A DNA stretch of 64,000 nt, from contig NZ_CP059348.1 in the NCBI RefSeq assembly GCF_013702265.1, forward strand, positions 3,720,001 to 3,784,000, in the 5' to 3' direction. The position numbers were made by a program, and so were the translations under genes. Under the pieces are notes generated by a model that saw nothing but the letters and a program-made list of their open reading frames with translations, had not been told where the DNA came from and did not search any database. Within the stretch, counting starts at the first letter, position 1. Each line of letters starts with the position of its first letter. This stretch comes from Providencia rettgeri. Its GTDB lineage: Bacteria > Pseudomonadota > Gammaproteobacteria > Enterobacterales > Enterobacteriaceae. This document shows, piece by piece, positions 55,385-58,415 of the stretch.

Positions 55385-56542
55385 ATGTCCACACGCCTCG
55401 ATCTCGACCTTCTTGCCCAAAATATTAAACAATGGGGCATCGATGCTGGCTTTCAACAAGTCGGTATTTGCGATACGGATCTTACCCTTGAAGAACCCAA
55501 GCTCCAAGCATGGCTGGATAAACAATATCATGGCGAAATGGAGTGGATGAAGCGCCATGGTATGATGCGGGCGAGACCCCATGAATTACACCCCGGCACA
55601 CTGCGCGTCATTAGTGTTCGAATGAACTATCTTCCTGCTAAGGCCGCTTTTGCCAGCACGCTAAATAATCCAGAACTAGGCTATGTCAGCCGCTACGCCC
55701 TTGGTCGCGATTATCATAAGCTATTAAAAAAACGCTTAAAAGTGCTTAGTGATCGGATCCTCGAGTATTGCAGCCAGTTTGAATGTTCCGATGATTTGAA
55801 TTTTCGCCCTTTTGTTGACTCGGCACCTATCCTAGAACACCCACTTGCTGTCAAAGCGGGTTTAGGCTGGACGGGTAAGCACTCACTGGTGCTCAACCAA
55901 CATTCAGGCTCATGGTTTTTCCTTGGCGAATTGCTTGTCAATCTTCCTCTACCCGTTGATCAACCCGTTGAAGAGCAGTGCGGGCGCTGCGTTGCTTGTA
56001 TGACAACTTGCCCAACAGGCGCAATTGTCGAGCCTTATACTGTTGATGCAAGGCGCTGTATTTCCTATCTAACCATTGAACTCGATAGCGCGATCCCCGA
56101 AGAGTTTCGCCCTCTAATGGGTAACCGGATTTATGGCTGTGATGACTGCCAACTTATCTGCCCGTGGAATCGCTTTTCTCAATTGACGGATGAAGAAGAT
56201 TTTAGCCCTAGAGCCGCATTGCATACGCCGGAACTATTGGATCTTTTTTCATGGGACGAAGAGAAATTTCTCCGTATTACGGAAGGCTCGGCGATTCGCC
56301 GTATCGGCTATATAAAATGGCTACGTAATATCAGCGTTGCTTTGGGTAATGCGCCCTATCAAGATAATATTGTTCTCGCATTACAGAGCCGTCTTGGGAT
56401 CAACTCTATGTTAGACGAGCACTTCCAATGGTCGATTGGCCAACAACTCAAGCGTCGAGAAGAAAACCAAGTCACAATTCAAACTTCGCAACAAAAACGT
56501 CTTGTTCGGGCAATTACTAAAGGTTTACCTAGAGACGCCTAA
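55385..56542 (+). CDS. queG: Epoxyqueuosine reductase
   Basis: QueG performs the last step of queuosine synthesis in tRNA, reducing epoxyqueuosine with a cobalamin cofactor and two [4Fe-4S] clusters. The 385 residues include the catalytic DSAPI/E region (FVDSAPILEHPLAVKAGLGW). The two cluster motifs are CGRCVACMTTCPTGAI (about 200-215) and CDDCQLICPWNRF (about 255-267). A C-terminal HEAT-like extension follows. It diverges from tsaE; downstream lies the datA-like non-coding region. Confidence 0.96.
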   Translation: MSTRLDLDLLAQNIKQWGIDAGFQQVGICDTDLTLEEPKLQAWLDKQYHGEMEWMKRHGMMRARPHELHPGTLRVISVRMNYLPAKAAFASTLNNPELGYVSRYALGRDYHKLLKKRLKVLSDRILEYCSQFECSDDLNFRPFVDSAPILEHPLAVKAGLGWTGKHSLVLNQHSGSWFFLGELLVNLPLPVDQPVEEQCGRCVACMTTCPTGAIVEPYTVDARRCISYLTIELDSAIPEEFRPLMGNRIYGCDDCQLICPWNRFSQLTDEEDFSPRAALHTPELLDLFSWDEEKFLRITEGSAIRRIGYIKWLRNISVALGNAPYQDNIVLALQSRLGINSMLDEHFQWSIGQQLKRREENQVTIQTSQQKRLVRAITKGLPRDA

Positions 56543-56586
56543 AAAAAGTCCAGCCTTATATCCTAATCTATCAATTGTCAAACTGA

Positions 56587-56595
56587 TGTGAATAA
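56587..56595 (-). promoter_or_regulatory. DnaA box TTATTCACA
   Basis: Exact match to the TTATNCACA consensus on the minus strand, 45 bp after queG. Confidence 0.6.
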
Positions 56596-56749
56596 AATAA
56601 AAAAGTGCTTACCCGACAATAGGTAAAGGATTTGCAAGTTGTGCTAAGCACATTTTGAAGAAATAGTTTTTTACTTTAATTTCAATGAATTAAAATTAAA
56701 ATTAATAATATTCATTTTGTGATAATCAAAAATTAACCAATAACTAACC

Positions 56750-56758
56750 TGTGGATAA
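56750..56758 (-). promoter_or_regulatory. DnaA box TTATCCACA
   Basis: Exact match to the high-affinity TTATCCACA sequence on the minus strand. Confidence 0.7.
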
Positions 56759-56814
56759 CTCTGTGCAGCAAAGTATTTCTGTCTAGGATAAATTGAACCT
56801 AGACCCACTCAGGT

Positions 56815-56823
56815 TGTGGATAA
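56815..56823 (-). promoter_or_regulatory. DnaA box TTATCCACA
   Basis: Exact high-affinity DnaA box on the minus strand, 65 bp from and parallel to the previous one. Confidence 0.7.
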
Positions 56824-57243
56824 CTTTCTCATGGAGAGAAGTAATAAAAAAACGCTGAATTTTAGTTAACTAACTAAAGTAAAGTTATCAAAAAGTCAGG
56901 TTAATAAGAAATTTTAACTGAACCGGTAAAAATAGGATTTTTTACCTTTCACTCGAACGTTCGCCATTTTGGCTGAAGTTCTTATAGGATGCCCTATTGC
57001 TAAGGGGTGGCTATTCTATGGCTCTCCGCCTATGAATGCAAGCAAAAAACTCACTTGGATCCTAAAAAGATCATAAATAATAAAAGGATCGTGAACAAGG
57101 AAGATAAAAATTGCTTTTGTGTAAATAATGAACATTAAACGGCTAATAAGTATTAATGCGTAAGCATAGAACTAGCATTTAATAGAATGTTTATTAAGGG
57201 GTCATACAGAAAGAAAAATAGAGAAAATTGAGAGGTAAAAATT

Positions 57244-57319
<76 letters not shown>

Positions 57320-57359
57320 ATTTGGTGGGTACTGCTTCTGCTAAAACACTAAGAAAGTT

Positions 57360-57435
<76 letters not shown>

Positions 57436-57475
57436 ATTCCGAAAATAGTGCTCTAGCTAAAACATCAAGAAAGTT

Positions 57476-57551
<76 letters not shown>

Positions 57552-57618
57552 ATAACCAATTCTTGGTGCCTTAATCGTGCCAATAAAATCATAAAAACTT
57601 CATCGGTACGGGGAGCGC

Positions 57619-57772: not shown

Positions 57773-58180
57773 TTATGATGAAGTGACCCAATCCTCTAAT
57801 CTTAAACCATCAACCCTTTCAAACTCGCGAGTATTATTTGTGACGACGATAAGCCCTTTGCTTCTAGCGTGAGCCGCTATGTGTAGATCATTTTCCCCGA
57901 TTTTTTTACCTTGTTTTTCGAGATTTGCTCGAATATCACCGTAATGACAAGCGGCCGCTTCATCATAAGGCAACACGCAAAGCCGAGAAACGAAATCATT
58001 AACAACAGCTAAATTTCGTTCTGGATTCATGCTTTTTTCTGCGCCAAAAACCAGCTCTGCTAACGTAATTGTTGAAATTGCCAATTGGTCAGCATGCTGG
58101 TTAAACTTTGGTAATAATGCTGCAGGTCGTCGTTTGATGGTGAAAATAATAATATTAGTATCAAGCAAGTATTTAATCAT
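57773..58180 (-). CDS. vapC: VapC-type PIN-domain toxin ribonuclease
   Basis: The 135 residues form a PIN domain with acidic residues Asp7 (LLDTNI), Glu42 (LAELVFG) and Asp98 (GENDLHIAAHA). The C-terminal VTNNTREFERV is typical of enteric VapC. Shigella and Salmonella VapC cleave initiator tRNA in the anticodon stem-loop. All catalytic residues are present, so the toxin looks active. Its start overlaps the vapB stop by 8 bp, coupling it to the antitoxin. The pair is absent from the E. coli glyV-orn interval, indicating insertion. Confidence 0.92.
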   Translation of the reverse strand: MIKYLLDTNIIIFTIKRRPAALLPKFNQHADQLAISTITLAELVFGAEKSMNPERNLAVVNDFVSRLCVLPYDEAAACHYGDIRANLEKQGKKIGENDLHIAAHARSKGLIVVTNNTREFERVDGLRLEDWVTSS

Positions 58181-58415
58181 CGAAAGATTCTCTTGGGGTA
58201 GGAACTTGCTCTGCTCTCGAAACTAAAAAATCATCCGTGGCCGAAGTTTCCGTTAAAAAGAAGCTATCCCACGTATTTTGCAGTGGTGTAATAATACGCT
58301 CTTTACCTTTCATTCTAACGGTGACTTCTTTCACATCATCAGGAAACCGTAACTCTGCGGGTAAACGAACATTTTGAGTCCGATTACTCATAAAAACCTT
58401 ACTGTGTAGGATCAT
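58173..58415 (-). CDS. vapB: VapB-type antitoxin
   Basis: The 80-residue antitoxin has an N-terminal SpoVT/AbrB-type swapped-hairpin DNA-binding domain (VFMSNRTQNVRLPAELRFPD, about 7-26, and ERIITPLQNTWDSFF). The C-terminal tail (about 52-80), rich in Glu, Asp and Pro, should neutralise VapC. The ATG with GGAGG 7 nt upstream was chosen; an in-frame extension reaches back into the operator and was rejected. Confidence 0.88.
   Translation of the reverse strand: MILHSKVFMSNRTQNVRLPAELRFPDDVKEVTVRMKGKERIITPLQNTWDSFFLTETSATDDFLVSRAEQVPTPRESFDD

What the first reader, a model, noticed from the sequence alone, without database searches (positions are those of the whole stretch)
56543..57243. Candidate datA locus: three consensus DnaA boxes beside glyVXY
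Seen: a 700-bp gene-free gap with TTATTCACA and two TTATCCACA, all on the minus strand, plus a 12-of-13 IHF match and a hairpin between two boxes. Known: E. coli datA, which binds many DnaA molecules and promotes DnaA-ATP hydrolysis with IHF, sits at the same place near glyVXY and queG. Inference: this is the equivalent site, with fewer boxes in a different spacing. If so, positional conservation exceeds sequence conservation.
Basis: partly seen in the sequence, partly recalled or inferred. Interest (0 to 1): 0.7.

Follow-up and report, generated by a model that had tools for sequence, protein, structure and literature searches.

The report
datA replication brake beside tRNA-glycine genes
A gene-free stretch in this bacterium keeps, box for box and at the same spacing, the E. 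coli datA site that switches off the replication starter protein DnaA, and in this genus it also carries a conserved promoter-like element pointing into the site, which could help test how datA is timed.

Summary
In detail: three consensus DnaA boxes on the minus strand of the queG-glyVXY gap, the only TTATYCACA triple within 300 bp in the 4.02-Mb genome.

Box 3, IHF site, box 2, box 7 and box 1 stand in E. coli order, orientation and spacing: box3-IHF 93 bp in both, box3-box2 163 against 162, box2-box7 12 in both, box2-box1 65 against 67. The two main boxes recur at this spacing in 125 of 132 Enterobacterales rows and are absent from 42 of 42 sampled loci of 13 other families. The layout is datA's, not DARS's. 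DnaA-ATP hydrolysis was not tested.

Not in the papers I found: (1) all 24 genomes of the genus carry TTGCAT-N17-TAGAAT pointing into datA, with GATC sites upstream; this may be a dedicated promoter. (2) Other Enterobacterales mostly have a GATC inside datA instead (64 of 86). (3) Vibrionaceae (30 of 30 loci) have a re-spaced DnaA-box cluster at the same place, with an IHF-like site in 23. Functions of (1)-(3) are inferred.

The parts
55385..56542 (+). queG, left neighbour (not part of datA)
   Evidence: ORF of 385 aa; matches found in 24 of 24 genomes of the genus; E. coli queG lies at the same place
56587..56595 (-). DnaA box 3 (TTATTCACA)
   Evidence: same place in E. coli (L001)
56680..56692 (+). 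putative IHF-binding site (TTTCAATGAATTA, 12 of 13), 93 bp from box 3 as in E. coli
   Evidence: at this offset 90 of 125 Enterobacterales rows have a match with at most 1 mismatch, at eight non-overlapping offsets 0-11% do
56750..56758 (-). DnaA box 2 (TTATCCACA), the same 9 letters in 125 of 125 rows that passed the two-box rule
56762..56770 (-). DnaA box 7 equivalent (TGCTGCACA, 2 mismatches, low-affinity type)
   Evidence: at most 2 mismatches at this offset in 115 of 125 rows, 0-14% at ten other offsets
56815..56823 (-). DnaA box 1 (TTATCCACA)
57013..57041 (-). conserved promoter-like element reading into datA: -35 TTGCAT (57036-57041), 17-nt spacer, -10 TAGAAT (57013-57018), then AGCCACCCC
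   Evidence: 24 of 24 genomes of the genus with a 17-nt spacer; both hexamers invariant also in the independent alignment of 22; spacer columns 0.72 identical; NOT listed by the consensus promoter scan
57058..57090 (.). three GATC (Dam) sites starting at 57058, 57069 and 57087, upstream of the promoter-like element
   Evidence: intact in 21, 21 and 19 of 22 distinct sequences of the genus; the third has flanks of 0.41 and 0.55 identity
57244..57551 (-). glyVXY, three tRNA-Gly(gcc) genes transcribed toward datA (neighbour)

Best explanation
The gap is the datA locus of this bacterium (inferred to be a Providencia species). ATP-DnaA binds box 2, the weak box 7 and box 3; IHF bends the DNA at the site between boxes 3 and 2, brings the DnaA molecules together and makes them hydrolyse ATP, so that initiation-active DnaA is removed after the origin has fired. 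Shown here: the boxes, their order, orientation and spacing, the IHF-site position, conservation across Enterobacterales, proximity to oriC, and genes matching the IhfA, Hda and SeqA families. Inferred from E. coli work: DnaA and IHF binding, ATP hydrolysis and initiation control. Also inferred: transcription entering from the tRNA side, from glyVXY and perhaps from the conserved promoter-like element, displaces IHF.
For: Same neighbours and orientation as E. coli. Spacings box3-IBS 93/93, box3-box2 163/162, box2-box7 12/12, box2-box1 65/67 (window/E. coli). IHF site and box 7 are position-specific. In the genus 24 of 24 keep boxes 3, 2 and 1, 23 of 24 keep box 7 with at most 2 mismatches, and 19 of 24 keep the IHF site with at most 1 mismatch. 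Other families of the order: 42 of 42 loci in 13 families have no consensus box there. Genome-wide and shuffle tests. Not a DARS core. oriC lies at C1 97.47-97.85 kb between ORFs recognised by eye as mnmG and mioC, so datA is about 345 kb (8.6% of the genome) away; in E. coli about 0.47 Mb of 4.6 Mb (PMC5742627, passages). IhfA, Hda and SeqA families score over cut-off.
Against: No binding, ATPase or replication data. The IHF site has one mismatch in the window, and 5 of 24 genomes of the genus have two or three mismatches there. Seven of 132 Enterobacterales rows fail the two-box rule: L122 and L170 show no box (L170 had a partial queG and an extrapolated region), L133, L148, L020 and L026 have box 2 and a box 3 with one mismatch, L015 has box 2 only. 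Box 1, dispensable in E. coli, has two or more mismatches or is missing in 35 of 125 rows. In the 42 box-free loci of other families, tRNA-Gly was found within the 1.5 kb taken in only 4, so for most of them the gap may not be the same gap at all.
Confidence: 0.9

Rival explanations
1. A DARS-type site that reactivates DnaA (releases ADP) instead of inactivating it.
For: It is also a cluster of DnaA boxes; box 2 and box 7 are 12 bp apart, like the last two boxes of the E. coli DARS cores.
Against: The DARS cores have a convergent box 14 bp before the central box. The geometry test finds this in E. coli DARS1 and DARS2 and twice in the own-genome stretch L228, but not in the window gap, the whole window or E. 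coli datA. The three strong boxes all point the same way.
Confidence: 0.03
2. A passive titration site: the boxes only hold DnaA, without IHF-dependent hydrolysis.
For: High-affinity boxes near oriC would titrate DnaA whatever else they do; IHF site imperfect in the window and weak in 5 of 24 genomes of the genus.
Against: The weak box 7 keeps its offset in 115 of 125 rows and the IHF site in 90 of 125; titration alone would need neither.
Confidence: 0.06
3. Chance boxes in AT-rich spacer DNA.
For: TTATNCACA alone is not rare (5 in the window, 2.9 expected).
Against: Shuffle and genome-wide tests and conservation in 24 of 24 genomes of the genus at nearly fixed spacing (161-165 bp).
Confidence: 0.005
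4. For the extra 400 bp: the promoter-like element is a relic, the promoter of a small RNA, or a pair of sites for some other protein, rather than a datA control element.
For: It matches only 8 of 12 consensus promoter bases and the promoter scan did not list it. The GC-rich stretch after the -10 looks like that of rRNA/tRNA promoters (type recalled, from no call), and a tRNA operon is next door; Vibrionaceae have longer tRNA arrays here.
Against: No Rfam family except tRNA reaches its gathering score; no covarying RNA structure; no conserved hairpin; by eye no conserved reading frame in the sequences; hexamers invariant in all 24 genomes, so not a decaying relic.
Confidence: 0.4

Closest known systems
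E. coli datA (DDAH site)
   Same: Same place (queG | glyVXY), same strand, box 3 - IHF site - box 2 - box 7 - box 1, spacings equal within 2 bp; tRNA operon transcribed toward it; near oriC.
   Different: Spacer sequence diverged beyond blastn; box 1 is TTATCCACA here and ATATCCACA in E. coli; 420 bp instead of about 20 bp between box 1 and glyY; no GATC inside the core but three GATC and a promoter-like element in the extra DNA; no counterpart of the E. coli plus-strand TCATCCACA beside box 3, taken as box 4 from recall.
E. coli DARS1/DARS2
   Same: DnaA-box clusters with a tandem pair 12 bp apart; DARS2 also uses IHF (PMC4245941 and PMC5742627, passages).
   Different: They have a convergent box at 14 bp, absent here.
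DnaA-box clusters of Bacillus subtilis and Streptomyces coelicolor that repress initiation (named in PMC10950094 and PMC4585315, passages)
   Same: Negative control of initiation by clustered DnaA boxes.
   Different: Likened to datA in function in those passages; not compared here.

Membership tests
datA | Intergenic position between queG and the tRNA-Gly operon | tested here: met
datA | Consensus boxes 2 and 3 in the same orientation, about 162 bp apart | tested here: met
   163 bp in the window, 162 in E. coli
datA | IHF site between boxes 3 and 2 at the E. coli offset | tested here: met
   TTTCAATGAATTA, 12 of 13, offset 93 in both; binding not tested
datA | Low-affinity box 7 next to box 2 | tested here: met
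   TGCTGCACA, 2 mismatches, offset 12 as in E. coli (TTGTAAACA, 2 mismatches). The E. coli box 7 letters were deduced from its described position, not read in a paper
datA | Box 4 (stimulatory in vitro, not essential) | tested here: inconclusive
   No plus-strand box with 0-1 mismatch before box 3 in the window; that E. coli TCATCCACA there is box 4 is recall
datA | Near oriC, duplicated soon after initiation | tested here: met
   about 345 kb from oriC
datA | IHF-dependent stimulation of DnaA-ATP hydrolysis; untimely initiation on deletion | not testable with these tools
   experiment needed
DARS | Convergent DnaA box 14 bp before the central box plus tandem box at +12 | tested here: not met
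   with E. coli DARS1 and DARS2 as positive controls and a hit in own-genome L228

The most novel reading that the evidence does not exclude
In Providencia and Proteus, datA has its own replication-gated promoter. The element at 57013-57041 transcribes across the IHF site and keeps datA off. When the fork passes, the GATC sites just upstream become hemimethylated, SeqA binds and silences the promoter, transcription stops, IHF binds and datA switches on. This would supply a timing factor of the kind that the E. coli work calls unidentified (PMC10950094, abstract and passages). In other Enterobacterales a single GATC inside datA may do a related job. In Vibrionaceae a re-spaced cluster at the same place may be a datA or a datA/DARS hybrid.
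Probability: 0.12. Interest if true: 0.8.

Novelty: new variant of a known kind. Interest (0 to 1): 0.5.

Why it matters
datA is known from E. coli, and the passages I saw test its conservation only among E. coli strains (PMC4585315). Here the minimal architecture (box 3, IHF site, box 2, box 7) is kept across Enterobacterales while the spacer has diverged. That is independent evolutionary support for the E. coli mutant work, including the weak box 7. What times IHF on datA is described as partly unknown (PMC10950094). A genus with a conserved promoter-like element and GATC sites beside datA gives a concrete, testable candidate, as does the exchange of a GATC inside datA for GATC sites outside it.

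Tried and rejected
Tried and rejected. (1) Hairpin between boxes: over 120 distinct sequences the box7-box1 interval folds at -6.1 against -5.3 for shuffles; two of four control intervals show a similar shift (-4.6 against -3.9; -3.8 against -3.2) and two show none, so it is not a special element. (2) A structured RNA in the extra 400 bp: fold_alignment gives 4 pairs, none with changes on both sides. An earlier script run against shuffled columns gave z = -4.5; I do not rely on it, because column shuffling breaks base order and the tool run found no covariation. An A-run/T-run hairpin beats flank shuffles at 0.05 in 7 of 22 sequences only. (3) Rfam on 56400-57600: no family except tRNA reaches its gathering score. 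(4) Terminators: none found on the minus strand of the gap; in the E. coli gap the same scan found two, against 1.0 in shuffles, so its silence says little. (5) The promoter scan did not list TTGCAT-N17-TAGAAT; its support is conservation only. (6) The Vibrionaceae cluster as a DARS core: at 14-bp spacing none in the 3 loci tested; at 19-bp spacing all three fit, two of them read on the other strand. It is left open between datA-like and DARS-like. (7) No offset control was run for box 1.

Five family genomes with broken queG (G049, G051, G074, G077, G126) of 71 with a match were not fetched. Of 95 genomes of other families with a queG match, 51 were fetched.

Full report
What is there. The gap 56543-57243 lies between queG (55385-56542, plus) and three tRNA-Gly(gcc) genes on the minus strand. 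It holds TTATTCACA at 56587-56595 and TTATCCACA at 56750-56758 and 56815-56823, all minus. The window is C1:3720001-3784000 of a 4,023,756-bp one-contig genome. The genus is inferred to be Providencia: 24 genomes held in the genus; among named hits Xenorhabdus and Proteus come nearest, at 80-82% QueG identity; and no Providencia is among the 80 named hits, from which near records may be left out. No tool named the genome.

Chance. Dinucleotide shuffles of the gap reach three consensus boxes in 2 of 5000 runs. The genome has 136 TTATYCACA sites; the only triple within 300 bp is this one (228 bp start to start), and the next spans 722 bp and includes two oriC boxes. The chance of any triple within 236 bp under uniform placement is 0.004 (from the lists). 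IHF-like matches are not above chance in number (5 with at most one mismatch, 2.2 expected, P = 0.08).

Comparison with E. coli. In MG1655 (L001) the same gap reads box 3, IHF site TATCAATAGGTTA, box 2, box 7, box 1. Measured in the same way: box 3 to IHF site 93 (window) and 93 (E. coli); box 3 to box 2, 163 and 162; box 2 to box 7, 12 and 12; box 2 to box 1, 65 and 67. Box names and roles (2, 3, 7 and the IHF site essential, 4 stimulatory, 1 dispensable) are from passages of PMC10950094, PMC5742627, PMC10380432 and PMC5835720; the letters of E. coli box 7 and box 4 were deduced or recalled. The window gap has no blastn match in the E. coli genome collection at E up to 1, so the arrangement is kept while the spacer sequence is not.

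Conservation. Gaps were taken from the 24 genomes of the genus (window included), from 66 of 71 further family genomes with a queG match, and from 80 named loci, 41 of them Enterobacterales. Of 132 Enterobacterales rows, 125 have a consensus box 3 and a consensus box 2 in the same orientation within 150-170 bp; the observed range is 157-165, and box 2 is TTATCCACA in all 125. A match to the IHF consensus with at most one mismatch falls at the expected offset in 90 of 125 (eight non-overlapping other offsets 0-11%). Box 7 with at most two mismatches falls 12 bp from box 2 in 115 of 125 (ten other offsets 0-14%). Box 1 with at most one mismatch is present in 90 of 125. The seven failures are L122 and L170 (no box; L170 had a partial queG and an extrapolated region), L133, L148, L020 and L026 (box 2 present, box 3 with one mismatch) and L015 (box 2 only). 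Within the genus: boxes 3, 2 and 1 in 24 of 24, box 7 with at most two mismatches in 23 of 24, IHF site with at most one mismatch in 19 of 24.

Limits of the family. Of 95 genomes of other GTDB families with a queG match, 51 loci were taken. 42 of these, in 13 families, have no consensus box in about 540 bp after queG; tRNA-Gly was seen within the 1.5 kb taken in only 4 of the 42. One locus in family f5 has two boxes 161 bp apart; one in f11 has boxes at 149, 314 and 373 plus three tRNA-Gly. Seven of seven in f21, taken to be Vibrionaceae from likeness to the named loci, have a different cluster. Sixteen named loci (Idiomarina, Alteromonas, Shewanella, Oceanimonas and similar) have no consensus box in the part scanned: up to about 390 bp for fourteen, up to the tRNA (96 and 624 bp) for L058 and L075.

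Function. The DARS core geometry is found in E. coli DARS1 and DARS2 and in the own-genome stretch L228, beside an ORF recognised by eye as mutH, but not in the window; so the site has the inactivating, not the reactivating, layout. oriC lies at C1 97.47-97.85 kb, between ORFs recognised by eye as mnmG and mioC, about 345 kb away. IhfA, Hda and SeqA families score over cut-off. By E. coli work, ATP-DnaA on boxes 2, 7 and 3, drawn together by IHF bending, hydrolyses ATP. Nothing here tests that.

The extra DNA. In this genus the gap to the tRNA is 684-835 bp in the 22 of 24 genomes where the tRNA motif was found; in most other Enterobacterales with the motif it is 266-355 bp, outside Morganellaceae with exceptions L034 (427), L131 (645) and L152 (951). 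The extra DNA between box 1 and glyY holds, on the minus strand, TTGCAT-N17-TAGAAT in 24 of 24 genomes of the genus. Proteus columbae (L005) has TTGCAT and a Proteus-like locus (L108) TTGCAA with the same spacer length and -10; Morganella (L016) has TTGCTA-N17-TAGAAT; the Morganella-like L119 did not match the pattern, and by eye reads TTGCTA-N17-TAAAAT. The pattern was not found in the five Xenorhabdus or Photorhabdus loci and one similar unnamed locus (L105) searched. In 22 distinct sequences the spacer columns average 0.72 identity and the 16 nt after the -10 0.92; the script was anchored on the hexamers, but an independent alignment of 22 genomes also shows them invariant. From the presumed start to the far end of box 1 is 190-193 nt in 24 of 24. 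It would transcribe into datA. The GC-rich stretch after the -10 resembles rRNA/tRNA promoters (recalled). The promoter scan did not list it. Upstream are GATC sites at relative positions 0, 11 and 29, intact in 21, 21 and 19 of 22; the third stands in poorly conserved flanks (0.41 and 0.55).

The GATC exchange. Outside Morganellaceae, 64 of 86 distinct sequences have a GATC starting 51-55 bp from box 3, inside datA; in Morganellaceae 4 of 33 do. None of the 24 genomes of this genus nor L005 and L108 have a GATC in the core. In the E. coli model, read-through from the glyVXY promoter removes IHF, and an unidentified factor is needed (PMC10950094: abstract, passages and one section; its text has no mention of SeqA, GATC or methylation). 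A SeqA-gated promoter is therefore a natural but untested idea.

Vibrionaceae. In 30 of 30 loci (23 named, 7 unnamed) a box near queG (TTTTCCACA in 28, TTGTCCACA in 2) is followed 262-281 bp later by a minus box (TTATCCACA in 29, TTACCCACA in 1), with a convergent plus box (TTATCCACA or TTACCCACA) 18-19 bp before it, and an IHF match (at most one mismatch) 124-129 bp before it in 23 of 30. The order is that of datA, but the convergent pair recalls DARS at another spacing. The tRNA cluster there holds tRNA-Gly and tRNA-Met.

Literature. Among the papers listed by searches (several lists were cut at 10-20 titles) I saw none that describes datA in Morganellaceae or Vibrionaceae. PMC4585315 (passages) covers 59 E. 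coli genomes. PMC8682772 (passages) shows DARS2, not datA, in Photorhabdus and V. cholerae. PMC3937223 (passages) likens RctB sites of V. cholerae to datA. PMC12371093 (passages) treats box density in E. coli. The two main datA papers (PMC3549119, PMC5270471) are not held, so earlier alignments of datA may exist there.

Noticed in passing
window 57013-57041 and 57058-57090: Conserved promoter-like element pointing into datA with three GATC sites upstream, genus-wide, in the extra 400 bp between datA box 1 and glyY.
   Followed up: yes
Vibrionaceae loci among L044-L081, and L205-L208, L218-L220: queG-linked cluster of DnaA boxes, mostly with an IHF-like site, at datA's place but with other spacing and a convergent box pair.
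   Followed up: partly
Enterobacterales datA, 51-55 bp from box 3 (E. coli L001): A GATC site is kept inside datA in 64 of 86 non-Morganellaceae sequences and missing in this genus and the two Proteus-like loci.
   Followed up: partly
G000:C1:2923415-2923449 and 2923624/2923743 (L228): Own-genome DARS2-like core with E. coli geometry, and a TTATCCACA pair 119 bp apart exactly as upstream of E. coli mutH, before an ORF recognised by eye as mutH. A second stretch of L228 (position 730) also fits the DARS geometry.
   Followed up: partly
window 57773-58391, minus strand: PIN-domain gene (Pfam PF01850) with a small upstream ORF without Pfam match, possibly a toxin-antitoxin pair, between glyV and orn.
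   Followed up: partly
L003, L004, L006, L007 (Xenorhabdus, Photorhabdus): datA boxes are kept but glyVXY is not next to them: in L003 the first tRNA-Gly is about 2.6 kb beyond queG, in the other three none is in the locus. L006 and L007 hold a short tRNA-end-like motif at about 370 bp, as if DNA had inserted at the tRNA gene.
   Followed up: partly
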